Below are positions 1,675-52,606 of a DNA stretch of 64,000 nucleotides, piece after piece. The notes beneath the pieces are model-generated. The model did no database searches. It saw only the letters and a list, made by a program, of their open reading frames with translations, and was not told where the DNA came from. Position 1 is the first letter of the stretch, and each line of letters begins with the position of its first letter. The DNA lies in assembly GCA_015143295.1 (NCBI GenBank), contig CM026559.1, positions 18,986,826-19,050,825 on the forward strand. Direction: 5' to 3'. Position numbers and translations under genes: made by a program. Source of the DNA: Tetracentron sinense (Eukaryota > Streptophyta > Magnoliopsida > Trochodendrales > Trochodendraceae).

Positions 1675-1711
1675 AAATTTCGGGGACGAAATTTTTGTAA
1701 AGGGGGGAGAA
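1675..1711 (+). other. Pre-LTR hairpin and polypurine tract of A
   Basis: An 8-bp perfect inverted repeat, AAATTTCG then GGGA then CGAAATTT (1675-1694), precedes a purine run AAAGGGGGGAGAA (about 1699-1711) directly before the 3' LTR. The same arrangement occurs in B and on the minus strand in C. The purine run is the expected plus-strand priming site. The hairpin is a shared signature of this family whose role I do not know. Confidence 0.8.
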
Positions 1712-4108
1712 TGTAGCACCCCGGACTTTTCTATACTTAATGAATACCGTTTTCGTAGCTAATCGGCCTTCCTCATAGTCTAATTAATAAATAAGAGAGA
1801 AATCGGAAATTCTAAAATGTCAGAAATGTTCATTTTCGAAAGACGAACCCAACGCAAGTTGAATCGTCGAAATCGGACGAGTGAGTCAAAAGTTATGGTC
1901 AAAACAGTCCAGACATGCAGAGCACCCATCGCTCGGTCCAGTCAGCGATCGATCGGTCCAAAACCGATCGATCGGTAGCTATCGCACGGTCAAAAATTTT
2001 GTATGGGGAAATTTTCCAGAGAGTATTTTTTTGACCGGTCGCTCGGTCAGAGTACCGATCGCTCGGTAGGCCACCGATCGATTGGTCATAACCACCGATC
2101 GCTCGGTCCCCGTGTTTTGCAGAAAATTTTGTAAGGGCGTTTTTGTCTTTTGGGTGTTAAATCCTTTCTTATAAGGCTAGGCCCGAGCCTTAGAGATTAT
2201 TTACAACACTTAGAAGCTTTTGAGAGTTAGGGAGAGATGAGAAGAGACTCTAACCTAGGGTTTTGATTTTTGAGAAGGAATCAAAGGGGTTTAAGAACCC
2301 TAGATCATCCTCAACTTGGATTGCTTCAAGTTCAAGGTTCAACTCGTGTGGGACTCCTCCTCCAAAGTTAGGGCAGCAACTCACACAAGTTTTTCCAAGG
2401 GGTTTCTTCCTCAACTCAAGCTTTCTTCAAGCAAGGATCTTTCTTCTTGCAAGTTGGAGCTTCAATCAAGGTTTCTACCAAGGATCAAGCCTTGATTCAA
2501 GGTTAGTACACCCTACTAACTTACCCTAGCAATAAATCTAAGTTTTCTTTATGAAATGTGATTTATACTATTATGTTTGCTTTCTTGTGAAATGTATCAT
2601 CCCTAATAAATATAAACAAGATAAAGAAATGGTATGGATGCTTGGATGGATGTGGGATGTGGCGATTGGATGCCGAATGGGTGATGTATGGTATGTGTGG
2701 GTCGTGGATTAGAAAATGGAGGATGGGCATTACACAAATAATAAACTTACCTTGTGTGATTGAATGTAAAATATGCACTAAAAAGGAGAAAATGAACAAT
2801 GAGGAAACTTGCATGCTAAGTGTTTGACAAAATACCTAAACTATGAACTAATGATTTAAATGAAGAAATGGAAAGGGGCCTTATGCATATATTCTCATGA
2901 ATGATGAATGGATTTAAATACCATTCTGATTACTCAAATTCTCATATGTATATATTGTGAATTGAATGGTGATGTCATACCTCTCCTATTATCCTTATTC
3001 TATGGTTGTCACGATTGACACGTACACGAGCACGCATGATAGCATGAACCGAGATTTCAAGAGCATATGCATATAATAACCAATAAGAAAATATTGCATG
3101 TCAAGGAGGTTGGTAGCCCAAGGACATTCGGTTACTAGCCTCTGGCTCACAAGAAAACCCCTAAAACACCTATTGTCAAGGAGGTTGGTAGCCCAGGAAA
3201 AATTCGGGTACTAGCCTCTGGCTCACAAGAAAACTAAACAAGTAATAAAAATCACCTATTGTCAAGGAGGTTGGTAGCCCAGGGACATTCGGGTACTAGC
3301 CTCTGGCTCACAAGAAAACCATACATATCAAGGAGGTTGGCAGCCCAGGGAGATTCAGGTGCTAGCCTCTGGCTCACAAGTTACAAGATACAAGGTTACA
3401 AGATGATGACAAGACATTCATGCATGCACGCATACATGGTTTTAAAATGCATACCGGGACATGGAAACGGGTTTTCAAGCATGAGTTTTGTCGGCGTTTT
3501 TGCATTCATGCTCATCAAGATGATAATATTTCTCCATGATTAATATCGTTTAATTCTATGATTTTACTATTGCCTGGAATTGATGATTGGTATTGTACTA
3601 CTCTTTGCATGTTTATTATTGTTATGGATAGCTAGTAGCTTGTACTCGCTGAGTATTTCATGCTCAGCCGTACTTTCATGTTGGCAGGTACTGAGGGAGC
3701 CCTCGACCCAGAGCCTTGGGTCGAGGAAGAGTATATCGAGGAGAAAGAGCCATCTATCCCACTGCAGTCTCAGGCGGACCGAGACCTTGACGTGTGGCCA
3801 TACCTCGACTACTGTTGAGGGGAGAGTACGAGAGGGTCTTTTATGTATTTTGACATTTTGATAGGTGGGTTTGTCCACCTTAGACTTAGACATGTTTTGT
3901 ATATATGTTAACTTGGAATACTATTTTGGAAATCTTAGAAGAAAAGAAAAAGTTAGTTTACGCTTCCGCATTTATGTTTAGCTTCTGCGCTCTGATTATC
4001 ATTGTTTAGTACGTTAATTATCTTATTCATGACAGGATGGTTTGGCAGGTACGTATAGTCACGCCTAAAGTATCCCTAAACTCATAGGGGGTATTTTGGG
4101 GTGTTACA
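1712..4108 (+). repeat. 3' LTR of A (2397 bp)
   Basis: It starts TGTAGCACC directly after the polypurine tract and ends TGTTACA. In order it holds: a U3 palindrome cluster at 1926-2108 (CCGATCGATCGG types), a TATA-like TTATAAGG at about 2169, a tandem array at 3101-3385, the conserved GCTGAG/CTCAGC hairpin at 3648-3668, and a conserved 3' end. Short open frames inside it are not conserved as proteins between copies. Confidence 0.88.
3101..3385 (+). repeat. Tandem array in the A LTR (4 units)
   Basis: There are four imperfect units of roughly 70-80 bp, each starting TCAAGGAGGTTGGTAGCCC and ending near CTAGCCTCTGGCTCACAAG. Within a unit, GAGGTTGGTAGCCC can pair with GGGTACTAGCCTC as RNA, with two G-U pairs and one bulged G. 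Solo LTR G carries two units of the same type at 21970-22091. Confidence 0.8.
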
Positions 4109-4660
4109 ACGGAGCCCTGAAAATAGGAGTTGTGCCTGGTGCAAGCTCAATCATAAACTCAATCTCCCTGTCTAGAGGCAATCCTGGCAACTCCTCTGGA
4201 AATACATCCAGGAATTCACTCACAACTGGAATAGTCGATGAGTCCTTTGCCTCGGGCTTAGCTAAGCTCAATGCCGCAAAACGAGCAATATCTCTACTTT
4301 TCAACCCGCGAAAGTGGAATGGTTTTCCTTCAACTGGCTTGAAGAGTACCATTTTCTCAAAGCAAGCTACATGCCCGTGATGTGCCGCTAACCAATCCAT
4401 TCCCAATATCATGTCAAAGTCTTGGAATTCAAGAACTATTAGATCAACCGCCAACTCGTGACTTCCCACTTGAACCACACTATTTTGACACACTTTGTTT
4501 GTCAACACTATTTTACCGAGAGGAGTCAAAATGGCTAACTCCGGTTCTAGCTGACTAGGCTCCACAGAAAAGCCTTCTGAAAAGCTTGGCGAGACAAACG
4601 AATGAGTAGACCAGGTATCAATCAACACTCTAGCCAAACATTCGTTGACTAGTAGGGTTC
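4109..4660 (-). pseudogene. pol: D pol 5' end: aspartic protease, inactive
   Basis: This is homologous to the start of pol in B and C. It has the retroviral-type aspartic protease with [10 protein letters not shown], then the linker towards RT (FPEELPGLP), ending at 4109 where A interrupts. The catalytic triplet reads DTW instead of DTG, so the protease should be dead. In the frame shown it joins to D gag only through the inferred intron at 4661-4802. Confidence 0.85.
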
Positions 4661-4802
4661 CTGAAATTTCAACTAGTTACGTCAATCCATGCATCACATC
4701 ATATGTATATAGGTAGATAGATATATAGCACGCCACATACGTACACAAGGAGAAAAGCATAACATGACAATCGCGGTAAAAAGAATAACTCTAAACGCGT
4801 AC
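4661..4802 (-). other. Inferred intron between gag and pol of D (142 bp)
   Basis: On the minus strand the donor is CAAG/GTACGCG and the acceptor TTTCAG/GAACCC. Both sit at the same positions as in B and C. The length is 142 (remainder 1 modulo 3), yet the join is in frame. Confidence 0.65.
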
Positions 4803-6051
4803 CTTGTACCACATCATCAGATGCAACTGCATCACCCTCTGTCAAGGTAAAAACTCGCCCTTGGTTCGCCTGGTGAGGCGGAGGTGTAGACCGGGTAGTC
4901 TGGGATGACGCCTGGTATGATCTTGCTGGGCGTGCTGGGGGCCTAATCCCCTGAGACTGGCTTGGTAAATGCCGAGTAGGGCAATCCCTAATAACATGGC
5001 CCTAGCGACCACAATGAAAACATCCACCCGATGCCCTTTGGCAATCTCCTGCCGGGTGCCTTCGGCCGCACGAAGTGCAGACCTCGTGTGTATAGGTCGG
5101 AGGGGTCGGAGGTGGAGCATACCTCACCGTCTGAGGTACAACTGGCCATAGAGCTGGAAGAGCCTAAGGTCGTGGTGCCTGAGGCACATACTGCCGTGGA
5201 GCTGGAGGCGCATAAGATGGCCTCATCGGTGGTGCTGGCCACGTGTACTGATAAGGGCCAGTACGAGCCCGCCTCTCTGGAGGTGCCAAACTACTAGGTT
5301 GGCCTCTCGCCAATTCCCTCTTCTTGGACACTATCTCTGAATTGGCCTAGGCTAATAATGCCTTGTCCACTACCTAAGGATAGGTAGCATGTCTGAAAAC
5401 CGAAACCTTCTCCATGATAACATCTTTGAGCCCTTGCTCAAACCTTCTCGCCTTCATTGCCTAGGTGGTAACCATGTGAGTCGAGAAGCGTGATAGCTCC
5501 GAGAACTTAGCCTCATAAGCTGCCACAGTCATCGAACCTTGCTCTACGTTGATGAACTCTCTTTCTTTCTTTTCCCGTGATCCAACAGGAAAGTACTTCT
5601 TATAAAAAGTATCCTTGAACTCCTCCCAAGTCCAAGGTTGACCCTGCATAGTCAAATCCCGTGTCCTCAATGCGGACAACCACCAGTGATGTGCCTCCCC
5701 CTCTAGCATGAAAACTGCCCATGCTACTCTATCCTCCTCTGTAGGCAAGAGGACCCCAAAGATCTTCTCCATCTGGAGGATCCATGCCTCCACAGCAAGA
5801 GGGTCCACACTCCCATGGAATGGTGGAGGCCTCAATCTCCTGAATGCCTCAACCCCAGCTGTACGATGTACTGGAGCCGTAGGCGGTGGAGTAGGTGCCG
5901 CCGAAGAAGGTATAGTCTGCAGAGCCGCCAGAATGGCGAGAGTCTCAGCAATAGAGCCTAAGACTTGAGAGAGGTCTGGCTGCTCATCCTCACCTCTAGA
6001 AGAAGATGAAGCTCTAGTGTGTGGTCCACAACCCCGTGTGCCCCGCCTCAT
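4803..6051 (-). pseudogene. gag: D gag, same length as B gag but with nonsense codons
   Basis: The ATG is at 6051 (minus). The capsid-type retrotransposon gag region (AEAWILQMEKIF, then EGEAHHWW, then FKDTFYKKYFP) is clear in the first 197 codons. A GAG to TAG change ends that frame at 5461. The rest (proline-rich stretch, zinc-knuckle region) is still recognisable with further damage. From the ATG to the last full codon before the donor is 1245 nt, exactly as in B and C, so net length has been kept while point mutations built up. Confidence 0.85.
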
Positions 6052-6390
6052 AACTAAAGCCCTGAGAATAATAGCACTACATGAGTCTCACTTGAAACTA
6101 CAATTTATCACAGTTCCAGTTCACCACAATTCAATTTGTATTAATTGTATAATACTAATATACATCGCATCACAACCATCAGTGTATTTATAATATTATA
6201 CCTTGGTGTTCTAGTGTTCCTAAGACTCGTACTTGGTAGAAGCAACCATTTTGACTAAGACTAAAGTTTCGTCTTACACTTGGATCAAGACTCGCTTCCG
6301 ACTTACTTCCTTCCTAACTTGTTTCCTAACATATGATCTTGTCAAGCTATGGTAATAGATTCTAAGTGACCCTAGAGACCTAAAGCCTAA

Positions 6391-6402
6391 GCTCTGATAC
6401 TA
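6391..6402 (-). other. Primer-binding site of D
   Basis: The reverse complement of TGGTATCAGAGC with one mismatch. It matches the 3' end of initiator methionine tRNA and lies four bases inside the LTR end at 6407. Confidence 0.8.
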
Positions 6403-6406
6403 CTTC

Positions 6407-7845
6407 TCGTCGCGACCCAAAACCCACCCTAGGAGTTAGAGTGAACTTTGGACGACTAATCATGACTTACATGGCTTGCTAGACAAACCCTCCTGCAAAA
6501 ACCCACAGAGCATATACAAAGAGGATATAAACAGCGGAAACATACTTAAACATAGCACAGCGGAAGACTTAACCAAACCTCTATGTATATACATATGTGA
6601 TCCAAGTTACACAAAAGAAGTCCAAAAGAAAGTGCGGACAAGCCCGCCAAAATACATGGATATACATCTCTCAACTCACCCACAGCTCTATCACTCAGAA
6701 TCTACAACCACTACCTAATAGTAGCCCTCTACCGGAGGTTCCTCCAAAGGTTCCTCGACGTACTTCTCCTCCACCCAAGGGCCGGGAGCACAAACATCAA
6801 AAGGAGCAGCCGCTCCGCTATCACCTGCCGACATAAGAAGTACGGCTGAGCATGGAATACTCAGCGGGTACCAAATACTAACCAATAATCATAGTATAAA
6901 AATGGCAATACATAAATCAGGAGCAATTCATATATGAAAAACGGGAACAATTCATGTCATACAAGGAAGTAAAGCAATTTATATTCATGCTTGCATTTCG
7001 TAAAAGCCGATAAAACCCTTGAAAACACCGTGTGCTTGACTTGACTTAAGTACCATTTTCGTGCTTGAAAACTCGTCTTGTCTATCTTGCTTGATTCTTG
7101 TAGATCGTGTCATGTCATGCATGTCATGCGTGCTTGCTTGTGGTTATGTAACTTGTGAGATACACTTATCAGATGTACTTGTGAGATGCACTTGTGAGAT
7201 GCCTTGAGAGGGAAAGGAGACCCTTCTTCATGCAAGGCACTTGAGAGGGAAGGGAGACCCTTCTTCATGATATGTATGTACTTGCGAGGGAAGGGAGGCC
7301 CTTCTTTATGCTATGCACTTGTGAGTGAGGGGAGACCCCTCGTGGAATGTTTGTTCTTGTTTTCTTGTGAAAAGCGAGGTAAAACATATCGTAGGATATG
7401 TCCCACCTCTAATCATGTTCTTGAAAACCTCGGTAAATCATGTCATGCATACCGTGCTCGTGGGATCGTGTGCATACTTGCATTTGAATTTAAACATGAC
7501 ATTTGGGGATTTCACAATGTATAGCATATAGCAATTTCTAAACAAAACATTCATAATATTTTAGGGAAAACAAGAACTCATGCTAGCATAATCCCTAACA
7601 AGTTACATAAGTAATTTAGCATGTATTTTCTTGATTTATTATTCATTTTATTCGCCTTGGCATTCCATCAAACATGGTATGTTCATTATTTGTTAACCCT
7701 ACAACATGCTTTTCTAGGTGTGTTATAATTCCATCATACATGTTTGTTCATTATGGATGCAATGCCCTCCCCATTTCAATTATCACAACACAACCATTGG
7801 CATCCAATCGCCTATTCCATCTCCATTCACAACATCCACACATCC
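6407..7845 (-). repeat. 5' LTR of D, piece 1 (LTR 3' part)
   Basis: It begins TCGTCGCG, the family end TGTCGCG with one inserted C. It has the conserved GCTGAG/CTCAGC hairpin at 6845-6865 and about four tandem units at 7203-7350 built on AGGGAAGGGAGACCCTTCTT. It stops at 7845 with CATCC, the target site of element B. Confidence 0.88.
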
Positions 7846-8058
7846 TGTAGCACCCCGGACTTTTTTCATCCTTAATGAATAGCACCTTCGTAGCTAATTG
7901 GCCATTTTTGTAGTTTAATTAATAAATAAGGGAGAAATCGAAAATTCCGAAACGTCAGAAATGTGCGTTTTCGAAAGACGAACCCAACGCAAGTTGAATC
8001 GTCGAAATCCGACAAGCGAGTCAAAAGATATGGTCAAAACAGTCCAGACATACAGAGA

Positions 8059-8243
8059 ACCGATCGCTCGGTCCAGTCAGCGATCGATCGGTCCATAACC
8101 GATCGATCGGTAGCTATCGCGCGGTCAGAAAGTTTGTATGGGGAAATTTTCCAGAGAGTGAGTTTTTGACCGGTCGATCGGTCATAAACACCGATCGCTC
8201 GGTAGGCAACCGATCGATCGGTCATGACCACCGATCGCTCGGT
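8059..8243 (+). promoter_or_regulatory. U3 palindrome cluster of B
   Basis: About seven copies of a 14-bp motif: perfect palindromes ACCGATCGATCGGT alternate with near-palindromes ACCGATCGCTCGGT. They end about 60 bp upstream of the TATA box. Equivalent clusters sit at the same place in every related LTR in the window. A promoter or enhancer role is inferred from position only. Confidence 0.7.
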
Positions 8244-8304
8244 CCGCGCGTTTTACAGAATTTTCACTAAGGGCATTTTCGGCATTCGGGTGTTATACCC
8301 TTTC

Positions 8305-8312
8305 TTATATAG
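8305..8312 (+). promoter_or_regulatory. TATA box of the B 5' LTR
   Basis: TTATATAG in the context CCCTTTCTTATATAGGATT, downstream of the palindrome cluster and upstream of a conserved GCCCGAGCC block. Transcription would be expected to start about 25-35 bp further on. The 3' LTR has the same site near 15794. Confidence 0.65.
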
Positions 8313-9247
8313 GATTGCCCGAGCCTTTAGGGCTCATTCTCAACCTTTAGAAGATTTGGGAGATTAGAAGAGAGGAGAAAGGGTTCCTAAATCTAGGGTT
8401 TCCATTTTGAAGAGGAATCAAAAGGGTTTGAGACCCTAGATCATCCTCAAGCACGTTTTCCTTCAAGATCTCGGCTCAAGCTCGGGTGGAGCTCGTGTTC
8501 CAAGCTAGGGCAGCAACTCACGGTCGTTTGGAAGAGGGGTTTCTTCCTCATCTTTTTAAGGTCGGTACTTCTTACTACCCTCCTAGTTATAGCTTCCCTT
8601 TTCCTTTATTTCTTCTTGTTTTCCTTCACATATATATGTGTTATGAGATTGGTGGTATGAATGGTGAATGGAGTTGGATGTTGGCGAATGGATGCCGTGT
8701 GGATGATGTAATGAACGAATGGGAAAGGGCATTGTACTAATAATGAACATACAAGTGTGATGTGAGCATAACCCACCTAGAAAAGCATGATCTAGGTTTA
8801 AGTGAATAATGAACACACCCCATGTTTGATGAAATGCCAAGGTGAACAAAATGAATGATAAATTAAGGGAACCCATGTTTAATTGCTCTTGAAATTTGTT
8901 AGGGTTCATGATAGTGTGTTTCTTACATTTCTTAAAATGTGTAGATTATTAATTACTTAAATTGTCATATGCTATGCCTTGTGAATCACTCCAAATTGTC
9001 ATATTTAATTCCAAATGCAAGTATGCACACGATCTCACGAGCACGCATGGAATGATGTGATTTACCGATGTTTTGAGTATGGGACGTAGAGGTGGGGCAT
9101 ATCCTAAGATATGTTTCACTTCGCTTTGACAAGGGCAAGACAATCATGCATTGCATAGGGAAAGGTCTCCCATCCCCTCGCATGACATGCATAGCATCGC
9201 ATGACACGCATAGCATAGCATGGCATGACACGCATAACATAGCATCA

Positions 9248-9409
9248 CACATTCTGCATGGATGCTAGTTGCGACGGGCTATGAACGGCAACTCGGCATT
9301 CACATTCTGCATGGATGCTAGTTGCGACGGGCTATGAACGGCAACTAGGCATACCCATCTGCATATAGGGTACTAGTTGTGACGGACTATGAACGGAAAC
9401 TAGGCATGT
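9248..9409 (+). repeat. Tandem hairpin array in the B LTR (3 units of about 53 bp)
   Basis: Each unit contains GATGCTAGTTGC, then about 15 bases, then GCAACTAGGCAT. These arms pair over about 11 bp with one bulge. The third unit is more diverged. Solo LTR M has four or five units of the same type. Confidence 0.8.
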
Positions 9410-9708
9410 GAACATGTTTAAATTATGAACAAGCAAGCATGATACTCGCATGACATGACATGACACGCATGATATGACAAGATAAGACAACATAACAAGT
9501 TTCAAGCACGGAAATGGTATTTTCAAGTCAAGTCAAGTGCACGATGTTTTCAAGAGGTTTCATCGGCTTTCTACGAAATACAAGCATGATTATAAATTGT
9601 TTTGCTTCCTTGTATGATATAAATTGTTCATGTTCTATATATGCAACTTGCTTCCTCCTTTATGTATGCTATCTGTATGCTATGACTACTGGTTAGTGCT
9701 TAGTACCC

Positions 9709-9750
9709 GCTGAGTATTCCATGCTCAGCCGTACTTCTTATGTCGGCAGG
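9709..9750 (+). other. Conserved LTR hairpin block
   Basis: GCTGAG, nine bases, CTCAGC, followed by CGTACTTCTTATGTCGGCAG. It is repeated with the same 6-bp arms and 9-base loop in A, C (twice), D, E, G, M and the 3' LTR of B (17197), and in diverged form in I (30374). It lies in the transcribed part of the LTR. Packaging, dimerisation or processing roles are possible but unproven. Confidence 0.75.
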
Positions 9751-10162
9751 TGACGGTGGAGCAGCTGCTCCATTTGATATCTGTGCTCCGAGTCCATGGG
9801 TGGAGGAGGAGTACGTCGAGGAGCCTTTTGAGGAACCTCCAGTTGAGGGTTACCATTAGGTGGTTGTAGATTCTGAGAGGATTAGCTGTGGGTGAGATGA
9901 GAGATTTTATCCATGTATTTTGGCGGGTCTGTCCGCACTTTCTTTTGGTTACCTTTTTTTTGTATAAACTTGGACCATATGTATATACTTAGAGGTTTGT
10001 TAGACTTCCGCTGTGTTTTATAGTTATGTTTCCGCTATAATGTCCTCTATTGTATATGCTCTGTGGGGTTTTGCAGGTTGGTTTGTCAAGCAAGTCATGT
10101 AAGTCATGATTGAGTCGTCCAAGATTCACTCTAACTCCTAGGGTGGGTTTTGGGTCGCGACA

Positions 10163-10523
10163 GAAGTGGTATCAGAGCATAGGCTTTAGGTCTCTAGGGT
10201 CACTTAGAATCTTATACCACGGCTTGACAAGAGCATATGTTAGGAAACAAGTTAGGAAGGAAGTGAGTCGGGAGCGAGTCTGGTTCCAAGTTTAAGACTA
10301 AACTTTAGTCTTAGTCTAAAATGGTTGCTTTAACCAAGTACGGGTCCTAGGTACGCTAGAACACTAAAGTATAAGTATAATGTGATGAATACTCTGATGA
10401 CTTGATGTGATGTATATTAGTATTATACAACTAATACAGATCGAATTATTGTGAAACAACATTGAAATAAACTGTGTTTTCAAGTGAGACTCATGTGGTG
10501 CTATTTTCCTCAGGACTTTAGTC
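10163..10523 (+). other. 5' untranslated leader of B
   Basis: About 360 bp between the primer site and the gag ATG, without a convincing gene. It is conserved in C and D at the matching place (50035-49676 and 6390-6052). Confidence 0.7.
10167..10178 (+). other. Primer-binding site of B
   Basis: TGGTATCAGAGC, complementary to the 3' end of plant initiator methionine tRNA, four bases after the 5' LTR. It is the usual minus-strand primer site of this class of element. Confidence 0.95.
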
Positions 10524-11783
10524 ATGAGGCGGGGCACACGGGGTCGTGGACCACACACCAGAGCTTCATCTTCTTCTAGAGATGAGGATGAGCAGCCAGA
10601 CCTCTCTCAGGTCTTAGGCTCTATTGCTGAGACACTCGCCATCCTGGCGGCTCGGCAAACTATACCGGCATCAGCGGCACCTACTCCACTGCCTGCAGCT
10701 CCAGTACATCGTACAGCTGGAGTTGAGGCATTCAGGAGATTGAGGCCTCCATCCTTCCATGGGAGTGTGGACCCTCTCGCAGCAGAGGCGTGGATCCTCC
10801 AGATGGAGAAGATTTTTGCGGTCCTCTCGCCTACAGAGGAGGATAGGGTAGCATGGGCAGTTTTCATGCTAGAGGGTGAAGCCCACCATTGGTGGTTGTC
10901 CGCATTGAGGACACGAGACTTGACCATGCAGGGTCAACCTTGGACTTGGGAGGAGTTTAAGGACACGTTCTATAAGAAGTATTTCCCGGTTGGAGCTCGG
11001 GAAAAGAAAGAGAGAGAATTCATCAACCTTGAGCAAGGTTCGATGTCTGTGGCCGCTTATGAGGCCAAGTTCTCGGAGCTATCACGCTTCGCGACACATA
11101 TGATTGCCACCGAGGCAATGAAGGCGAGGAGGTTTGAGCAAGGGCTCAAGGATGTCATCATGGAGAAAGTGTCAGTTTTCAGGCACGCCACTTACGCCGA
11201 AGTAGTGGATAAGGCCTTATTGGTTGAGGCTAATTCTGAAGCAGTGTCTAAGAAGAGAGAGTTGGCGAGAGGCCAAGCCAGTAGTTCAGCACCTCCAGAG
11301 AGGCGGAATCGTACCGGACCTTATCAGTATACATGGCCAGCACCACCGATGAGGCCGACTTATGCGGCCCCAGCACCACGGCAGTACGTGCCACAGGCAC
11401 CTCGACCTCAGGCTCTCCCGGCCCCATGGCCAGTTGTACCTCAGGTGGCGAGATATGCTCCACCTCAGGCCCCTCCTACCCGCACACACGAGGCCTGCCC
11501 TTCTTGCGGCCGACGGCACCCAGCTGGGGATTGCCTAAGAGCATCGGGTGGATGTTTTCACTGTGGTCGCCAGGGCCACGTGATCAGGGATTGCCCTACC
11601 CGGCATTTACCAGGCCAGTCTCAGGGGATTAGGCCACCAGCACGCCCAGCAGGATCATATCAGGCGTCATCTCAGACTACCCGGTCTACACCTCAGTCTC
11701 GCCAGGCGAACCAGGGGCGAGTTTTTGCCTTGACAGAGGGTGATGCACTTGCATCTGACGATGTGGTGCAAGGTACGCGTTAG
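10524..11783 (+). CDS. gag: B Gag (capsid and nucleocapsid), 419 aa
   Basis: This is the structural protein that forms the retrotransposon particle and binds its RNA. The ATG at 10524 follows the leader and is conserved in C and D. After an N-terminal arm rich in Arg and Ser, residues about 88-195 form the retrotransposon gag (capsid) domain, with AEAWILQMEKIF, EGEAHHWW and FYKKYFPVGAREKKERE. A Pro/Gln/Ala-rich stretch follows (about 255-320). Two Cys/His clusters come next: CPSCGRRHPAGDC near residue 325 and a classical CCHC knuckle CFHCGRQGHVIRDC near 345. The TAG at 11781 lies 8 nt inside the inferred intron, so this 419-aa form is the product of unspliced RNA. Splicing at 11772 would replace the last residues with Pol. 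Confidence 0.93.
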   Translation: MRRGTRGRGPHTRASSSSRDEDEQPDLSQVLGSIAETLAILAARQTIPASAAPTPLPAAPVHRTAGVEAFRRLRPPSFHGSVDPLAAEAWILQMEKIFAVLSPTEEDRVAWAVFMLEGEAHHWWLSALRTRDLTMQGQPWTWEEFKDTFYKKYFPVGAREKKEREFINLEQGSMSVAAYEAKFSELSRFATHMIATEAMKARRFEQGLKDVIMEKVSVFRHATYAEVVDKALLVEANSEAVSKKRELARGQASSSAPPERRNRTGPYQYTWPAPPMRPTYAAPAPRQYVPQAPRPQALPAPWPVVPQVARYAPPQAPPTRTHEACPSCGRRHPAGDCLRASGGCFHCGRQGHVIRDCPTRHLPGQSQGIRPPARPAGSYQASSQTTRSTPQSRQANQGRVFALTEGDALASDDVVQGTR

Positions 11784-11916
11784 GAGTTATTTTCCTTATT
11801 CGTGATTGTTGTGTTATGTTTTATTCCTTGTGTACGTAGTTGGTATGCTATATATATATTTACCTACGTGTATACACTGTTGAGGCTTGAATTGACGTAA
11901 CTAGCTAAAATTTCAG
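11773..11916 (+). other. Inferred spliceable intron between gag and pol of B (144 bp)
   Basis: The donor CAAG/GTACGCG and acceptor AAATTTCAG/GAACCC fit plant splice consensus. The interval is T- and A-rich like plant introns, with possible branch-site sequence just before the acceptor. Joining 11772 to 11917 gives one open frame from gag into pol (1249 + 3326 nt = 1525 codons including the stop). Unspliced, two in-frame stops intervene (TAG 11781, TAA 11898). The boundaries are conserved in C and D while the length differs (146 and 142). Confidence 0.72.
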
Positions 11917-14900
11917 GAACCCTACTAGTCAATGAGTATTTGGCTCGAGTGTTGATTGATACCGGGTCTACTCATTCGTTTGTCTCGCCGAGTTTTTCAG
12001 AAGGCTTTTCTGGGGAGCCAAGTCAGCTAGAACCGGAGTTAGCCATTTCGACTCCTCTTGGCAAAACAGTATTGGCAGATAAAGCGTATAGAAATGGTGT
12101 GGTCCAAGTTGGAAGCCACGAGTTGGCGGTTGATCTCATCGTCCTTGGATTCCAAGACTTTGATGTTATATTGGGAATGGATTGGTTAGCAGCACATCAT
12201 GGGCATGTAGCTTGCTTTGAGAAAATGGTACTCTTCAAGCCAGTAGAAGGAAAACCATTCCACTTTCGCGGGTTGAAAAGCAGATCTATTGCTCGTTTTG
12301 CGGCGTTGGGCGTAGCTAACCCCGAGGCAAAGGACTCATCAACTATGCCGGTTGTGAGTGAGTTCCTGGATGTATTTCCAGAGGAGTTGCCAGGATTGCC
12401 TCCAGACAGGGAGATTGAGTTTATGATCGAGCTTGCACCAGGCACAGCTCCTGTTTGCAGGGCTCCGTATAGAATGGCCCCTATTGAACTCAAAGAGTTA
12501 AAGGCTCAGTTGGAAGAATTACAAAGCCTTGGCTTCATTCGACCAAGTGTCTCACCGTGGGGTGCCCCAGTGTTGTTTGTTAAGAAGAAAGATGGCTCGA
12601 TGCGGATGTGTGTCGATTATCGGCAATTGAACAAAGTCACTATAAAGAATAGGTATCCATTGCCTAGGATTGACGACTTGTTCGATCAGTTGAAGGGAGC
12701 AAGATTTTTCTCAAAGATAGATCTTCGATCGGGTTATCACCAGTTGAAGATTAAGGTGGAAGATGTTCCCAAAACTGCTTTCAGGACTCGATATGGGCAC
12801 TATGAGTTCTTGGTGATGCCCTTTGGTCTCACGAACGCGCCGGCAGCCTTTATGGATTTGATGAACCGGGTGTTCCGACCATACCTAGATCGGTGCGTGA
12901 TTGTATTTGTTGATGACATTTTGGTCTATTCCCAGACACGGGAAGATCACATACGCGACCTTCGCCTCGCATTGGAAATGTTAAGAGAGCACAAGCTATA
13001 CGCCAAAATTAGCAAGTGTGAGTTTTGGTTGGAAGAGGTGGCATTCCTAGGCCACGTTGTTTCCGTGGAAGGCATCTCCGTTGATCCGAAGAAGATAGAA
13101 GCTGTTATGAGTTGGGCGAGGCCCAAGAGTGTTACTGAGATACGCAGCTTTCTTGGGCTGGCAGGCTACTACAGGAGATTCGTAGAGGGTTTCTCTAGCC
13201 TTGCAGCACCGCTTACTCACCTAACACGGAAGAATGCGCAGTTTGTTTGGAGCGACAAGTGTGAGATCAGTTTCACGGAACTGAAGAAGAGGCTTACTAC
13301 AGCTCCTGTCCTTACAGTGCCATCCGGATCTATTGGGTATGAGGTGTACAGTGATGCCTCACACGTTGGACTTGGATGTGTGCTTATGCAACACAAGAAG
13401 GTCATTGCCTATGCATCAAGGCAATTGAAGGAGCATGAGAAGAATTACCCCACGCACGACTTAGAGCTTGCCGCAGTCGTGTTTGCACTCAAGATCTGGC
13501 GACATTACTTATACGGGGTGGAATTCTATGTGTATACGGACCACAAGAGCCTCAAGTACCTCTTTTCCCAAAAGGAATTGAATCTAAGGCAACGGCGTTG
13601 GATGGAATTTCTGAAGGATTATGATTGTACCATTCAATACCATCCGGGTAAGGCAAATGTAGTGGCTGATGCTCTGAGTAGAAGACCTCAGGGGTTGTTA
13701 GCACACATGTTGGTTCAAGAATGGAAGCTACTAGAAGATTTGGCAAATCTGGACATCAGTGTGAATAACTCTGTCCGTGGTCCTACCTTGGCAAATGTTA
13801 CGGTTCGGCCGTACATTATAGATTTGATCCAAGAATATCAAGCCATGGATGCGGAATTGTTGGCTTTCCGGGACAAGGAAGTTGCCAAGGGCAGTGAAGA
13901 CTTTTCTCTCACTAGTCGGGGTGCTATCACATTCAAGGGAAGACTGTGCGTCCCAGCCAATGCAGATCTTCGAAGAGAGATTTTGGACGAAGCACACCGT
14001 TCGAAGTACACAGTGCATCCAGGGGGTACGAAGATGTACCGGAACCTCAAGAGTCACTTTTGGTGGCGGAATATGAAGAGGGAGGTTGCGGAATATGTAG
14101 CACGGTGCTTGGTGTGTCAACAGGTGAAAGCAGAACACATGCGGCCCGCAGGTCTATTACAGTCCCTTCCGATTCCCGAATGGAAATGGGAGAACATATC
14201 CATGGATTTCATAGTTGGCTTGCCAAAGACGGCAAGGGGTTCAGATGCGATATGGGTAGTAGTGGATCGTTTGACGAAGTCCGCTCACTTCTTGCCTTAC
14301 CGAACTACTTTCAACTCTAGTCAGTTAGCTGCTTTGTACATCAAGGAAGTGGTGAGGTTGCACGGAGTGCCTGTCAGTATTGTGTCGGATCGGGATCCAA
14401 GATTCACATCACGATTCTGGAAAAGCTTTCAGGAAGCTATGGGTTCCCGACTTGATTTCAGCACTGCTTTTCATCCACAGACGGATGGACAAACCGAGAG
14501 GGTGAACCAAGTAATAGAAGATATGCTTCGGGCTTGTATGCTGGATTTCAAAGGCAGTTGGGAAGAGCACTTGCCTTTGGTGGAGTTCGCCTACAACAAT
14601 AGCTATCAGGCGAGTATCCAAATGGCCCCGTTCGAGGCTTTGTATGGGCGAAGCTGCAGGTCTCCTCTCTACTGGGATGAGGTAGGAGAAAGAAAAGTAC
14701 TTGGTCCGGAGTTGATTGAGCAAACTACTAGTATAGTCAAGATCATCCGGGATCGGTTGAAAGCCGCTCAAGATCGCCAGAAGAGCTATGCAGACACGCG
14801 CCGCAGGGACTTGGAATTTCAAGTAGGGGATCGAGTCTTTGTGAAAGTATCTCCTAGCAAAGGGATTATGAGATTCGGCAAAAGAGGCAAGCTTAGTCCT

Positions 14901-15242
14901 CGCTATGTTGGACCGTTTGAGATTATCACGCGGGTTGGTGAAGTTGCTTATCGAGTAGCTCTTCCACCTTACATGGCCGCGGTTCACAACGTTTTCCACG
15001 TGTCTATGCTTCGGAAGTACATTGCGGACCCTTCGCATGTACTAGAATTGGAACCGTTGGAAATTCGAGAAGATCTCACGTTGGTTGAGAAGCCGATTCA
15101 CATATTGGATCGGAGAGATCAAGTGCTTCGCAACAAGACAATCCCTTTGGTTCTCGTGCAATGGCAACATCATGCCCGAGAAGAAGCCACGTGGGAGCGT
15201 GAAGCCGAAGTCAAAGCAAAGTATCCCGAGTTGTTTGAATAG
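11917..15242 (+). CDS. pol: B Pol: protease, reverse transcriptase, RNase H, integrase, chromodomain
   Basis: The block is open to the TAG at 15240. There is no in-frame ATG near its start; the first frame codons are non-ATG, so expression probably needs fusion to Gag by splicing. Counting from 11940: the aspartic protease with DTG is at about 7-9. RT has KKDGSMR near 218, YRQLN near 230, and the FVDDIL catalytic loop near 322-327. RNase H starts at YSDAS near 469. The integrase zinc-binding region ([11 protein letters not shown] to CLVCQQ) is near 686-725, with catalytic Asp near 755, SDRDP near 815 and Glu in ERVNQ near 852. A GPFEII module and a C-terminal chromodomain (about 1053-1100, [11 protein letters not shown]) follow. 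All expected catalytic residues are visible. The chromodomain is thought to guide integration to heterochromatin. Confidence 0.95.
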
Positions 15243-15334: not shown

Positions 15335-17651
15335 TGTAGCACCCCGGACTTTTTTCATCCTTAATGAATAGCACCTTCGTAGCTAATTGGCCATTTTTGT
15401 AGTTTAATTAATAAATAAGGGAGAAATCGAAAATTCCGAAACGTCAGAAATGTGCGTTTTCGAAAGACGAACCCAACGCAAGTTGAATCGTCGAAATCCG
15501 ACAAGCGAGTCAAAAGATATGGTCAAAACAGTCCAGACATACAGAGAACCGATCGCTCGGTCCAGTCAGCGATCGATCGGTCCATAACCGATCGATCGGT
15601 AGCTATCGCGCGGTCAGAAAGTTTGTATGGGGAAATTTTCCAGAGAGTGAGTTTTTGACCGGTCGATCGGTCATAAACACCGATCGCTCGGTAGGCAACC
15701 GATCGATCGGTCATGACCACCGATCGCTCGGTCCGCGCGTTTTACAGAATTTTCACTAAGGGCATTTTCGGCATTCGGGTGTTATACCCTTTCTTATATA
15801 GGATTGCCCGAGCCTTTAGGGCTCATTCTCAACCTTTAGAAGATTTGGGAGATTAGAAGAGAGGAGAAAGGGTTCCTAAATCTAGGGTTTCCATTTTGAA
15901 GAGGAATCAAAAGGGTTTGAGACCCTAGATCATCCTCAAGCACGTTTTCCTTCAAGATCTCGGCTCAAGCTCGGGTGGAGCTCGTGTTCCAAGCTAGGGC
16001 AGCAACTCACGGTCGTTTGGAAGAGGGGTTTCTTCCTCATCTTTTAAGGTCGGTACTTCTTACTACCCTCCTAGTTATAGCTTCCCTTTTCCTTTATTTC
16101 TTCTTGTTTTCCTTCACATATATATGTGTTATGAGATTGGTGGTATGAATGGTGAATGGAGTTGGATGTTGGCGAATGGATGCCGTGTGGATGATGTAAT
16201 GAACGAATGGGAAAGGGCATTGTACTAATAATGAACATACAAGTGTGATGTGAGCATAACCCACCTAGAAAAGCATGATCTAGGTTTAAGTGAATAATGA
16301 ACACACCCCATGTTTGATGAAATGCCAAGGTGAACAAAATGAATGATAAATTAAGGGAACCCATGTTTAATTGCTCTTGAAATTTGTTAGGGTTCATGAT
16401 AGTGTGTTTCTTACATTTCTTAAAATGTGTAGATTATTAATTACTTAAATTGTCATATGCTATGCCTTGTGAATCACTCCAAATTGTCATATTTAATTCC
16501 AAATGCAAGTATGCACACGATCTCACGAGCACGCATGGAATGATGTGATTTACCGATGTTTTGAGTATGGGACGTAGAGGTGGGGCATATCCTAAGATAT
16601 GTTTCACTTCGCTTTGACAAGGGCAAGACAATCATGCATTGCATAGGGAAAGGTCTCCCATCCCCTCGCATGACATGCATAGCATCGCATGACACGCATA
16701 GCATAGCATGGCATGACACGCATAACATAGCATCACACATTCTGCATGGATGCTAGTTGCGACGGGCTATGAACGGCAACTCGGCATTCACATTCTGCAT
16801 GGATGCTAGTTGCGACGGGCTATGAACGGCAACTAGGCATACCCATCTGCATATAGGGTACTAGTTGTGACGGACTATGAACGGCAACTAGGCATGTGAA
16901 CATGTTTAAATTATGAACAAGCAAGCATGATACTCGCATGACATGACATGACACGCATGATATGACAAGATAAGACAACATAACAAGTTTCAAGCACGGA
17001 AATGGTATTTTCAAGTCAAGTCAAGTGCACGATGTTTTCAAGAGGTTTCATCGGCTTTCTACGAAATACAAGCATGATTATAAATTGTTTTGCTTCCTTG
17101 TATGATATAAATTGTTCATGTTCTATATATGCAACTTGCTTCCTCCTTTATGTATGCTATCTGTATGCTATGACTACTGGTTAGTGCTTAGTACCCGCTG
17201 AGTATTCCATGCTCAGCCGTACTTCTTATGTCGGCAGGTGACGGCGGAGCAGCTGCTCCATTTGATATCTGTGCTCCGAGTCCATGGGTGGAGGAGGAGT
17301 ACGTCGAGGAGCCTTTTGAGGAACCTCCAGTTGAGGGTTACCATTAGGTGGTTGTAGATTCTGAGAGGATTAGCTGTGGGTGAGATGAGAGATTTTATCC
17401 ATGTATTTTGGCGGGTCTGTCCGCACTTTCTTTTGGTTACCTTTTTTTTTGTATAAACTTGGACCATATGTATATACTTAGAGGTTTGTTAGACTTCCGC
17501 TGTGTTTTATAGTTATGTTTCCGCTATAATGTCCTCTATTGTATATGCTCTGTGGGGTTTTGCAGGTTGGTTTGTCAAGCAAGTCATGTAAGTCATGATT
17601 GAGTCGTCCAAGATTCACTCTAACTCCTAGGGTGGGTTTTGGGTCGCGACA
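15335..17651 (+). repeat. 3' LTR of B (2317 bp)
   Basis: Near-identical to the 5' LTR, with the same internal order: palindromes 15548-15732, TATA near 15794, tandem array from about 16737, hairpin 17197-17217. It is followed by target duplication CATCC. Confidence 0.97.
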
Positions 17652-17656
17652 CATCC

Positions 17657-18195
17657 CAACTCATAGCACAAGTATAGATGAAGGAAAACAAAGAAACATG
17701 GAGGAAAAGAGGAACTATAACTAGGAGGGTAGCATGAAGTACCGACCTTGACAAATGAGGGAAAGAAACCCCTTCCAAAACGTTCGTGAGTAGCTGTCCT
17801 AGCTTGGAACATGAGCTCCACGAGTGCTTGAACCGAAATCTTGAAGCAATCCAAGCTTGAGGTGATTGTGGGTCTTGAAACCCCTTTGATTTCTCCCCAA
17901 AAGCAAACCCTAGGTTAGGGAAAACCCTTCTCCTCTTCCTTGAACTCTCAAAATACTCTAAGTGTTATGAATGAACCCTTAAATGCTCAGGCAAGGCCTT
18001 TAAGGCATGAGTGAAACGCCCAAAAGATGAAAATACCTTTAATGAAAGTTTCTGCAAAACACGAAGACCGAGCGATCGGTGGTTATGACCGATCGATCAG
18101 TTGCCTACCGAGCGATCGGTGTGTTGACCGAGCTCTCGACCAAAAATCAACTCTCTAGAAAATTTTCCCATACAAATTTTTCGACCAGTTGATAG
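17657..18195 (-). repeat. 5' LTR of D, piece 2
   Basis: The middle of the D LTR, resuming after B and stopping at solo LTR E. It contains the minus-strand promoter region and part of the palindrome cluster (about 18067-18139). The TATA position appears degenerate here. The 5-bp GATAG at 18191-18195 is the target site of E. Confidence 0.85.
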
Positions 18196-20449
18196 TGTAG
18201 AGCCCCGGACCTTTTCACACTTAATGCATGACAGTTTCGTTGTCATTTTCCCTTTAAAGAGGTATAATTAATAAATAAGGAGGAAATTGGAAATTTCAAA
18301 ACTTCAGAAATGTTCGTTTTTGAAGTACGAACCCAACGCAAGTTGAATCGTCAAAATCGGACGAACGAGTCAAAAGATATGGCCAAAACAGCCTGAACCT
18401 GCAGGGAACCGATCACTCGGTCCATAGAGCGATCGATCGGTCCAAAACCGATCGATCGGTAGCTATCGACTGGTCAAGATTTTTGTATGGGAAAATTTTC
18501 TAGAGAGATGATTTTTGGTCGAGAGCTCGGTCAACACACCGATCGCTCGGTAGGCAACCGATCGATCGGTCATTAACACCGATCGCTCGGTACTCGTATT
18601 TTTGCAGAAATTTCAGTAAGGGTGTTATGGTCTTTTGGTCGGTTCACTCTTACCTTAAGAGTTTAACCCGAGCCTTTAGGGCTCATTCTCAACACTTAGA
18701 AGATTTGGGGGATTGGAAGAGAGGAGAAAGGGTTTCCTAAGCTAGGGTTTTGCTTTTGGAGAAGAATCAAAGGGGTTTTGAGACCCTAGATCACTTCAAG
18801 TCCGGCTTTTCTCCAAGATCACGGCTCAAGCAACCGTGGAGAGTGTTCCCCAAGCTAGGGCAGCAACTCACGGTCGTTTTTGGAGGGGGATTTCTTCCTC
18901 ACTTGATCAAGGTTGGTACTTCTTACTACCCTCCTAGTTATAGTTCCTTTTTTCCCTTTATTTCTTTTGATTTTCCTTTATCTACACATGTGCTATGAGA
19001 TGGATGGTTGTGAATGGTGAATGGAGATGGAATGGGCGATTGGATGCCAAGGGTTGTGTTGTGATGATTAAAATGGGGAGGGCATTGTATCCATAATAAA
19101 CACACATTTATGATGTGAGTAAACTCACCTAGAAAAGCATGATTTAGGTTTAAATGAATAATGAATAATGAACACACCATGTTTGATGAAATGCCAAGGT
19201 GAATAAAGTGAGTTGTAAATTAGGAAACGCATGCCTAATAAATTATGGAAATTGCTAGGGCCTATGATAGTGTGTTTTTCTTGCTTTTCCTAAATGATGT
19301 GAATATTACATTGCTCAATCATTGATGCTATATGTGTTGTGAATTATCCAAATGTCATATTTAAATTTAAATGCAAGTATGTACACGATTCCCACGAGCA
19401 CGGCATGCATGACATGATTTATCGAGGTTTTCAAGAACATGGTTAGAGGTGGGACATATCCTACGATATGTTTTACCTCGCTTTTCACAAGAAAACAAGA
19501 ACCAACATTCCACGAGGGGTCTCCCCTCACTCACAAGTGCATATCATGAAGAAGGGCCTCCCTTCCCTCGCAAGTACATACATATCATGAAGAAGGGTCT
19601 CCCTTCCCTCTCAAGTGCATTGCATAAAGAAGGGTCTCCCTTCCCTCTCAAGGCATCTCTCAAGCGCATCTCACAAGGATATCTCACAAGTGTATCTCAC
19701 AAGTTACATGATCACAAGCAAGCACGCATGACATGCATGACATGACACATATGACACGCTCGACAAGATCAAGCAAGACAAACATGACAAGCTTTCAAGT
19801 ACGAAAAGATATTTTAAGCCAAGTCAAGTGCACGATGTTTTCAAAAGGTTTTATCGGCTTTCTACGAAATACAAGCATGATTATAAATTGTTTTACTTCC
19901 TTGTATGATATGAATTGTTTCCGTCTAACATATATGAATTGCTCCTGATTTATGTATTGGCATTTTTATGCTATGACTGTTGGTTAGTACTTGGTACCCG
20001 CTGAGTATTCCATGCTCAGCCGTACTTCTTATGTCGGCAGGTTCTGAGGGAGATGCTGCTCCATTTGATGTTTGTGCTCCTGGTCCATGGGTGGAGGAGG
20101 AGTACGTCGAGGAGCCTTTGGAGGAACCTCACGTAGAGGGTTATTAGTAGGTGGTGTTAGATTCTGAGTGGATTAGCTGTGGGTGAGCATGAGTGATTAT
20201 ATCCATGTATTTTGGCGGGCATGTCCGCACTTCCTTTGTTTTGATTTCTTTGTATTAAACTTGGACCATGTGTATATACTTAGAGGTTGTTAGACTTCCG
20301 CTGTGTTTTATAGTTATGTTTCTGCTGTCATCCTCTATTGTATATGCTCTGTGGGTTTTTCCAGGTTGGTTTGTCAAGCAAGTCATGTAAGCCATGATTA
20401 GTCGTCCAAAGTTCACTCTAACTCCTAGGGTGGGTTTTGGGTCGCGACA
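18196..20449 (+). mobile_element. Solo LTR E (2254 bp)
   Basis: TGTAGAGCCCC to GTCGCGACA, flanked by direct repeats GATAG (18191-18195 and 20450-20454), with no internal region: a solo LTR left by LTR-LTR recombination. Palindrome cluster 18407-18590, tandem GAAGGG/CCCTTC-type hairpin units at 19494-19650, conserved hairpin 20000-20020. It is inserted in the LTR of D in opposite orientation. Confidence 0.93.
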
Positions 20450-20454
20450 GATAG

Positions 20455-20721
20455 CCTCCGATCGATTGGTTTTGGACCGATCGATTGCTCCATGGATCGA
20501 GCGATCGGTTGCCTACAGGTCCAAACTGTTTTGGCCATATCTTTTGACTCGCTCGTCGGATTTTGACGATTCAACTTGCGTTGGGTTCGTACTTCGAAAA
20601 GGAACATTTCTGACATTTCAAAAATTTTAATTTCTTCCTTATTTATTAATTGTACTACTTTAAAGGTAAATTGGCTACGAAAGTGCCATGTATTAAGCAT
20701 GAAAAAGTCCGGGGCTCTACA
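20455..20721 (-). repeat. 5' LTR of D, piece 3 (LTR 5' end)
   Basis: The remaining 267 bp of the D LTR, starting right after the GATAG copy and ending in CTCTACA at 20721, which is the TG terminus on the minus strand. Palindromes at 20459-20514 complete the cluster interrupted by E. Confidence 0.88.
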
Positions 20722-44913: not shown

Positions 44914-44950
44914 TCCTCCCCCCCTTATAGAAATTTCGTCCTCGAAATTG
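44914..44950 (-). other. Polypurine tract and pre-LTR hairpin of C
   Basis: Minus strand: AATTTCG/AGGA/CGAAATTT, then TAAGGGGGGGAGGA directly before the 3' LTR, as in A and B. Confidence 0.85.
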
Positions 44951-44993
44951 GAACGATACATAGAGATTACAAGGAACAAAATTTACATAAACA

Positions 44994-47900: not shown

Positions 47901-48280
47901 GCGGACAATGTCTCTACTTCTCAACCCTCGAAAGTGAAATGGTTTTCCTTCTACCGGCTTGAAGAGTACCATCTTCTCAAAGCAAGCTACATGACCATGA
48001 TGTGCTGCTAACCAATCCATTCCCAATATAACATCAAAGTCTTGGAATCCCAGGACGATGAGATCAACTGCCAACTCGTGGCTTCCAACTTGGACCACAC
48101 TATTTCTATACACTTTATCTGCCAATACTGTTTTGCCGAGCGGAGTCGAAATGGCTAACTCCGGTTTTAGCTGACTGGGCTCCACAGAAAAGCCTTCTGA
48201 AAAACTCGACGAGACAAACGAATGAGTAGACCCGGTATCAATCAACACTTGAGCCAAATACTCATTGATTAGTAGGGTTC
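44994..48280 (-). pseudogene. pol: C pol: all domains present, broken by two stops
   Basis: Homologous to B pol throughout. Protease DTG intact. In RT a 9-bp in-frame deletion removes three residues after DYRQ (the conserved Leu-Asn are lost), while FVDDILVYS remains. RNase H and integrase zinc-binding regions are present (one Cys of CLVCQQ is Tyr). CAG to TAG at about 45881 breaks the frame before the second integrase Asp. A 30-bp in-frame deletion near 45610 both removes ten residues and creates a TAG. The frame then runs to 44994 through the GPY/F-type module (here GTFEII) and chromodomain. Confidence 0.92.
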
Positions 48281-48426
48281 CTGAAATTTTAACTAGCGGA
48301 GTTAATCCATGCATCAACAACGTATACATGTAGGTATATATACATATAGAACATGCCAAGTACGTACACAGAGAATAGAGCATAACCTAATAATCACGAA
48401 TAAAGAAATTAACTCTAACTACGTAC
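48281..48426 (-). other. Inferred intron between gag and pol of C (146 bp)
   Basis: Donor CAAG/GTACGT and acceptor AATTTCAG/GAACCC on the minus strand, at the same codon positions as in B. Length modulo 3 is 2, so without splicing gag and pol are in different frames; the splice join is in frame. Confidence 0.7.
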
Positions 48427-49675: not shown

Positions 49676-50019
49676 GACTAAAGTCCTGAGAATAATAACA
49701 CCACATGAGTCTAACTTGAAACCACAGTTTATTTCCACGTCATTTCACAATAATTCAATTTGTATTAGTTGTATAACACTAATACACCTCACATCAAGTC
49801 ATCAGAGTATTCATCACATTATACTTATACTTTAGTGTTCTAGCGTACCTAGGACCCGTACTTGGTTAAGCAACCATTTTTGACTAAGACTAAAGTTTAG
49901 TCTTACACTTGGAACCAGACTCGCTCCCGACTCACTTCCTTCCTAACCCGTTTCCTAACATATGCTCTTGTCAAGCCGTGGTATAAGATTCTAAGTGACC
50001 CTAAAGACCTAAAGCCTAA

Positions 50020-50031
50020 GCTCTGATACCA
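50020..50031 (-). other. Primer-binding site of C
   Basis: Reverse complement of TGGTATCAGAGC, four bases inside the 5' LTR end at 50036. Confidence 0.93.
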
Positions 50032-50035
50032 CTTC

Positions 50036-52601: not shown

Positions 52602-52606
52602 AAGCT

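What the first reader, a model, noticed from the sequence alone, without database searches (positions are those of the whole stretch)
11773..11916. Intron at the gag-pol boundary may set the Gag to Gag-Pol ratio
In intact element B, Gag ends in a TAG 8 nt past a good plant splice donor. Pol has no usable ATG and begins right after a TTTCAG acceptor. Splicing out 144 bp gives one 1524-aa Gag-Pol; retention gives 419-aa Gag only. Introns are established for Ogre elements and splicing controls Drosophila copia, but in both the intron sits elsewhere. In a Tekay/Del-like chromovirus this would be an alternative to frameshifting or readthrough.
Basis: partly seen in the sequence, partly recalled or inferred. 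Interest (0 to 1): 0.9.

Follow-up and report, generated by a model that had tools for sequence, protein, structure and literature searches.

The report
Spliced intron between Gag and Pol
A plant jumping gene carries what is very probably a real, removable intron exactly between its capsid gene and its enzyme gene, so keeping it yields capsid protein alone and splicing it out yields the capsid-enzyme fusion; dozens of natural copies in the same genome lack precisely this intron, which points to spliced RNA having been copied back into DNA.

Summary
In element B (LTRs 99.8% identical, TSD CATCC) 144 nt, 11773-11916, separate Gag from Pol, ending CAAG|GTACGC and TTTCAG|GAACC. The own genome strongly supports an intron. 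Exact patterns find 1526 and 783 intron-bearing copies; a junction pattern finds 46 lacking exactly this stretch. A pattern tolerating a 0-30 nt remnant found 33, all 33 precise. Three of five intron-less copies checked have LTRs at least 99.6% identical with TSDs; four keep one 1536-codon frame. Intron lengths fall in all frames. A second family, 64-66% identical in protease, has an intron at the same site and phase and exact intron-less copies; a closer sister, L125, lacks it. Frameshifting and readthrough are rejected as general mechanisms. Likely logic: unspliced RNA is genome and Gag mRNA, spliced RNA is Gag-Pol mRNA; that this sets the ratio is inferred, no RNA was seen. The principle is Ogre's; the Gag|protease site in a probable chromovirus was not found in print by ten searches (listed in the report). 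New variant.

The parts
7846..10162 (+). 5' LTR of element B
   Evidence: 2317 nt, 99.83% identical to 15335-17651; TSD CATCC at 7841-7845 and 17652-17656
10167..10178 (+). primer binding site TGGTATCAGAGC (initiator Met tRNA type, recalled)
   Evidence: sequence; LTR end
10524..11783 (+). Gag reading frame (419 aa) as read from intron-retaining RNA; the last 11 nt are intron
   Evidence: (Retrotrans_gag, Ty3_capsid, zf-CCHC)
11773..11916 (+). 144-nt intron, GTACGC...TTTCAG
11892..11896 (+). branch-point-like TTGAC, 25 nt from the intron end
   Evidence: TTRAY there in 42 of 43 sampled introns, 2.5 expected from shuffles (the introns are related, so not 42 independent cases)
11781..11783 (+). 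TAG that ends Gag when the intron is kept (B type only)
   Evidence: at this offset in 5 of 43 introns
11917..15242 (+). second coding exon: protease, RT, RNase H, integrase, SH3_Tf2-1, weak chromodomain
15335..17651 (+). 3' LTR of element B
48281..48426 (-). homologous intron (146 nt) in copy C
4661..4802 (-). homologous intron (142 nt) in degenerate copy A

Best explanation
11773-11916 is a genuine facultative GT-AG spliceosomal intron at the Gag|protease boundary of a plant Ty3/gypsy element, probably a chromovirus. Unspliced RNA is the genome that is packaged and copied, and as mRNA it gives Gag, terminated inside the intron. Splicing rejoins the ancestral reading frame within one glycine codon of the conserved VVxGTLxV motif and yields one Gag-Pol polyprotein. 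The spliced fraction would thus set how much Pol is made. Shown from sequence: splice-exact intron-less insertions, frame-independent drift of the intron, and an uninterrupted Gag-Pol frame in some spliced-type copies. Inferred: that both RNAs are made and translated, and that the fraction is tuned to give excess Gag. The confidence below is for the intron with these two products; the second rival shares the intron and differs only on regulation.
For: Intron-less copies: 46 hits to a 31-nt junction pattern with up to 3 mismatches, 0 in the reversed control; all 33 of 33 hits to a pattern tolerating 0-30 nt between the exon words are the exact junction. Five were examined at both ends: four have a matching 5-bp TSD and LTR-LTR identity of 98.3-99.96%; one (L019) has 96.2% and no clean TSD. 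Four show 1536-codon open frames. L019 is 100% and 99.7% identical to intron-bearing copies in the 340 nt on either side, L020 99.7% and 99.1%, L018 98.8% and 100%; 14 of 46 reach 98% on at least one side. Minimum state changes on trees: 9 and 8 (71 rows), 23 and 26 (111 rows). Intron-bearing exact matches: 1526 and 783. Intron mean pairwise divergence 18.4%, against 20.3% and 18.8% at gag and pol third codon positions, 11.5% and 6.4% at second positions. No indel in 1249 gag sites among A, B, C while their introns differ by 1-2 nt indels. Branch-like TTRAY in 42 of 43. T content 42.6% against 31.5% in flanks. Relatives keep 18 residues across the join in 30 of 30 scored, many of them near-identical Vitis proteins. 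A second family has an intron at the same site and phase, 25 exact intron copies and two exact intron-less ones.
Against: No RNA or protein data. The stop that ends Gag is not conserved in place and is no commoner than chance. Intron-less elements with intact frames exist as young insertions, and a sister family (L125; 1533-codon frame at C10:8597547, taken as the same family from its similar score) has no intron, so the intron is not indispensable. One sampled intron (L105) has no stop and a length divisible by 3, so retention there would not end Gag. Across the 43 sampled copies the 340-nt gag block has more columns with a gap (28.5%) than the intron (19.9%), pol 7.4%, and copy A has gaps of 79 and 64 nt against B and C in pol, so decay is not confined to the intron. 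Single-base conservation of the donor T (5 broken of 1531) is not clearly stronger than at an exon control base (9 broken). Sampled introns were found by patterns that require the splice ends, so conservation of those ends is not independent evidence.
Confidence: 0.85

Rival explanations
1. Pol is made by readthrough of the two stops or by ribosomal frameshifting in the unspliced RNA.
For: In B the stretch is 144 nt, divisible by 3, with only two in-frame stops.
Against: Lengths of 137-149 nt fall in all frames (8, 24, 11 of 43 for remainders 0, 1, 2) and stop positions vary; Pol-frame stops differ between A, B and C; no unusual RNA fold (z -1.03); the stretch drifts like synonymous sites.
Confidence: 0.02
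2. A real intron that is spliced nearly always: it would not regulate a ratio, and Gag-Pol would simply be the main product, as in single-ORF plant elements.
For: Intron-less relatives have long single ORFs; the retained-frame stop is at chance level.
Against: Intron-bearing copies outnumber spliced ones about 2309 to 46, so most RNA that was reverse transcribed was unspliced; the donor is off the recalled consensus at +4 and +6.
Confidence: 0.2
3. Intron-less is the ancestral state of the family, and the intron was gained later and spread by recombination; the 46 copies are not spliced-RNA products.
For: Other Ty3 families in the genome that were looked at, and sister L125, lack the intron; some mosaics are seen (L001: 91% upstream, 99% downstream of the junction); the deepest intron-less copies (L049-L054, about 79-92% identical to B in the 300 nt on either side) are not very close to any sampled intron copy.
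Against: The intron is at the same site and phase in family 2, outside B+L125 (supports 96/93 and 98/94), so it most simply predates the split. Intron-less copies are interleaved with, and some near-identical to, intron copies of several subfamilies. The AGTGCAAG exon variant that many intron-less copies carry also occurs with the intron (783 copies), though kinship between those sets was not tested.
Confidence: 0.08
4. Ordinary DNA deletion removed the stretch in the 46 copies.
For: Deletions are common in plant LTR elements (general knowledge).
Against: 33 of 33 remnant-tolerant hits have no remnant (remnants over 30 nt and deletions into the exons were not searched); two exact junctions occur in a second family; four of five intron-less copies checked are complete insertions with TSDs.
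Confidence: 0.01

Closest known systems
Ogre (Tat lineage) intron
   [quoted passage not shown] Same logic.
   [quoted passage not shown] PMC9289625, passage, words it as a putative intron between Gag and Pol). Here it lies upstream of protease, 144 nt, in an element with a weak chromodomain hit. The experimental Ogre paper (PMC2596294) was not held.
Bianca (Ty1/copia)
   Same: PMC6317226 passage: two ORFs separated by on average 172 bp.
   Different: Ty1/copia; no splicing shown in the passage read.
BARE1 (barley), EVADE (Arabidopsis), copia (Drosophila, recalled)
   Same: Facultative splicing adjusts Gag against Pol (passages of PMC3735527; PMC12786077).
   Different: Opposite polarity: there the spliced RNA gives Gag alone from a single ORF. 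In BARE, DNA copies of spliced RNA could not be amplified; here 46 such genomic copies were found.
Foamy viruses (Spumaretrovirinae)
   Same: Pol is translated from a spliced RNA whose level appears regulated by a suboptimal splice site (passages of PMC7828637).
   Different: Foamy Pol is a separate protein; here splicing yields a Gag-Pol fusion, with donor and acceptor both at the Gag/Pol border.
Single-ORF plant chromoviruses (Beta vulgaris families)
   Same: Gag and pol in one continuous ORF (PMC3605345 passage), like the spliced form here.
   Different: No intron described in the passages read.

Membership tests
Plant Ty3/gypsy LTR retrotransposon | LTRs with TSD, PBS, Gag then PROT-RT-RH-INT order | tested here: met
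Chromovirus | chromodomain at the integrase C terminus | tested here: inconclusive
   PF00385 at residues 1068-1112, E 3.3e-4, 21.0 bits against cutoff 25.1; a related ORF at 755-1618 scores 24.6
Tekay/Del clade | RT/INT phylogeny with Tekay reference elements | not tested
   no labelled references were placed on a tree
Ogre (Tat) | intron between GAG-PROT and RT | tested here: not met
   intron lies upstream of protease
Spliceosomal GT-AG intron | GT-AG ends, branch-like site, T-rich body | tested here: met
Spliceosomal GT-AG intron | precise removal from RNA | tested here: inconclusive
   inferred from exact intron-less genomic copies; no RNA available
Recoding (frameshift/readthrough) elements | fixed frame relation and recoding signal | tested here: not met

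The most novel reading that the evidence does not exclude
The intron is a genome/mRNA switch unlike copia's: unspliced RNA is both genome and Gag mRNA, spliced RNA is the Gag-Pol mRNA and is rarely copied (46 of 2355 copies counted). When it is copied, it can found lasting intron-less single-ORF lineages (the L125 family; 1536-codon intron-less copies), so an element family moves from split to fused expression by retrotransposing its own spliced mRNA.
Probability: 0.4. Interest if true: 0.8.

Novelty: new variant of a known kind. Interest (0 to 1): 0.66.

Why it matters
How plant retrotransposons with one polyprotein make excess Gag is not settled, and the plant splicing answers met in the passages read lie in Ty1/copia or in Ogre. 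Here an abundant Ty3 family with recent insertions (B and L012 LTRs 99.8 and 99.96% identical) carries an intron at the exact Gag|protease border, and the genome holds its own control set: 2309 exact intron matches beside 46 splice-exact intron-less copies, with a smaller parallel set in a second family (25 and two). That makes splicing, template choice and intron loss directly countable.

Tried and rejected
RNA fold of the boundary: z -1.03, nothing. Test of selection on the retained stop: at chance level, so dropped as support. Donor single-base mutation count against an exon base: 5 against 9, uninformative; the acceptor version did not complete. Gapped-column comparison of exon and intron blocks in the 43 copies went the other way for gag (28.5% against 19.9%); some sampled rows may have rearranged gag flanks (L110 and L115 are long branches), but I did not remove them. 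The Ogre and recoding papers sought are not held. Protein search of Pol residues 1-150: the relatives listed are at most 52% identical, so no close relative in another named species was found. Of its 66 proteins, 2 were dropped for low alignment score and 34 of the 64 left were not scored for spacing because the simple motif expression missed them; 13 of the 66 were used in the tree. Short-block trees (340 nt) have weak support and recombinant rows; their counts of 23 and 26 changes are not a count of events. The 40 sampled introns were picked by me for diversity from the first 100 listed of 1526, not at random. Sunflower (PMC7730604, PMC11728184), soybean Diaspora (PMC1142308) and orchid (PMC9289625) papers: passages only, no Gag|protease intron of a chromovirus in them.

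Full report
What is there. Element B is a complete LTR retrotransposon: LTRs 7846-10162 and 15335-17651, 99.83% identical, flanked by CATCC, with PBS TGGTATCAGAGC at 10167. Gag (10524-11783, 419 aa) has Retrotrans_gag, Ty3_capsid and zinc-knuckle matches; Pol (open 11901-15242) has protease, RT, RNase H, integrase, SH3_Tf2-1 and a sub-threshold chromodomain match. Between them lie 144 nt, 11773-11916, bounded by CAAG|GTACGC and TTTCAG|GAACC. The Pol frame has no ATG before residue 93, beyond the DTGS motif at residue 20, so independent initiation at an ATG would lose the protease active site.

Frame. Copies A, B and C in the window have 142, 144 and 146 nt here, hence all three frame relations, with different stops, but all keep donor and acceptor. 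Over 1249 gag sites A, B and C have no indel, while the introns differ by 1-2 nt indels; intron substitution (20.8-23.2%) resembles third codon positions (14.5-26.0%) rather than second positions (3.0-6.7%); A also has two long gaps in pol. In 43 copies (40 sampled from the genome plus A, B, C) lengths are 137-149 nt, with remainders 0, 1, 2 in 8, 24 and 11 copies. Mean pairwise divergence is 0.184 in the intron, 0.203 and 0.188 at gag and pol third positions, 0.115 and 0.064 at second positions; columns with a gap make up 28.5% of the gag block, 19.9% of the intron and 7.4% of the pol block, so across these copies indels are not confined to the intron. A branch-like TTRAY lies 23-27 nt from the end in 42 of 43 against 2.5 expected (related introns, not independent). 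The body is T-rich (42.6% against 31.5% in 104 flanking nt), the property that PMC3735527 (passages) uses for plant introns.

The join is the ancestral protein. Of 66 related proteins found with Pol residues 1-150, 64 aligned; in all 30 where a simple expression found the VFAL-like motif, it lies 18 residues before the protease strand TL, as in the exact join here; the other 34 were not scored, and many of the 30 are near-identical Vitis proteins. In the same genome other Ty3 copies carry uninterrupted frames across this point, the longest of 1463-1550 codons (which scored 150 of 14053 candidates); six of the places were read and have no insert there (L123-L128).

Natural intron-less copies. 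A 31-nt junction pattern (up to 3 mismatches) gave 25+21 hits and 0 in the reversed control. All 46 were fetched and have zero gap between the exons. A pattern allowing 0-30 nt between the exon words gave 33 hits, all exact. Exact intron-bearing patterns gave 1526 and, for the AGTGCAAG variant, 783, so spliced-type copies are about 2% of those counted (46 of 2355, with unequal stringency). Five intron-less copies were checked at their ends: L009, L011, L012 and L018 have LTRs 99.79, 98.3, 99.96 and 99.62% identical and matching 5-nt TSDs; L019 has 96.2% and no clean TSD. Frames of at least 300 codons (or open to the locus edge) on both sides occur in 12 of 46 intron-less and 15 of 25 intron-bearing copies; L009, L012, L018 and L024 appear with a single 1536-codon frame, which equals the 1524 codons from the ATG plus the 12 open codons before it (428 upstream).

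Independence. On trees of 700-nt blocks (71 rows) the minimum number of intron/no-intron changes is 9 upstream and 8 downstream; on 340-nt blocks (111 rows) 23 and 26, with weak support and some recombinants. Pairs such as L019 (100 and 99.7% to intron copies on either side), L020 (99.7 and 99.1%, another intron subtype) and L018 (98.8 and 100%) suggest recent separate losses; 14 of 46 reach 98% on a side, and the other 32 do not, the lowest being about 84-85%.

A second family. L119-L122 carry introns of 143-144 nt at the same site and phase (GTRCAAG|GTAYGT...TTYAG|GCACC) with a stop at offset 14. Protease identity to B is 64-66%. An exact pattern gives 25 intron copies; a junction pattern gives 3 hits, two of them exact, the third with 3 mismatches. 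On a protease tree (34 rows, 101 columns, several long branches) family 2 joins B plus the intron-less L125 with support 96/93, and L125 joins B with 98/94. The simplest history is one gain before the split and a loss in L125; two gains at one position would be the alternative.

Mechanism. Shown from genomes: copies with the stretch removed exactly at GT and AG, on several backgrounds, and an open Gag-Pol frame in some of them. This is best explained by splicing followed by reverse transcription. Inferred: unspliced RNA is the usual genome and the Gag mRNA, spliced RNA the Gag-Pol mRNA, and incomplete splicing gives excess Gag. Against a finely tuned stop: stops lie anywhere in the intron and their presence (40 of 43) equals the shuffled expectation of 41.4. 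Against indispensability: intron-less copies and the L125 family persist.

Known or new. [quoted passage not shown] PMC12786077 (passages) says plant elements generally lack introns, names Ogre and EVADE among the exceptions, and adds BARE1. PMC9289625 (passages) speaks of a putative intron between Gag and Pol in Ogre. PMC3605345 (passages) reports continuous single ORFs in Beta chromoviruses; a word search of PMC3059260 found neither intron nor splicing. Ten paper searches, seen as listings, and passages or word searches of ten papers showed no report of a Gag|protease intron in a chromovirus; most subscription papers are not held, so this is not proof of absence.

Noticed in passing
G000 C1244, C759, C379, C2:32.199-32.207 Mb; also C1265, C9:23.872-23.879 Mb: Copies of the family lie about 7.2-7.7 kb apart in the same orientation, as expected of tandem elements sharing LTRs; both intron-bearing and intron-less pairs occur.
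   Followed up: no
window 42344-53490 (minus) and 1711-8145, 15335-20721: Many related LTR copies on both strands, 60-100% identical; copy C (Pol frame 45882-48386) has near-identical LTR segments at 42344 and 50036.
   Followed up: partly
L001, L056, L060, L062: Gag side about 91% and Pol side about 99% identical to B: mosaics, possibly from template switching during reverse transcription.
   Followed up: no
L125 (G000 C5:24448625) and C10:8597547: A sister family without the intron, with a frame of 1533 codons at the second place (not fetched, grouped by score); may descend from a spliced copy.
   Followed up: partly
L099, L105, L108: Three of 43 introns have no gag-frame stop inside; L105 is also divisible by 3, so retention would leave the frame open there.
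   Followed up: no
window 55477-55989 (minus): ORF with a DUF7745 match and a sub-threshold plant mobile domain match.
   Followed up: no
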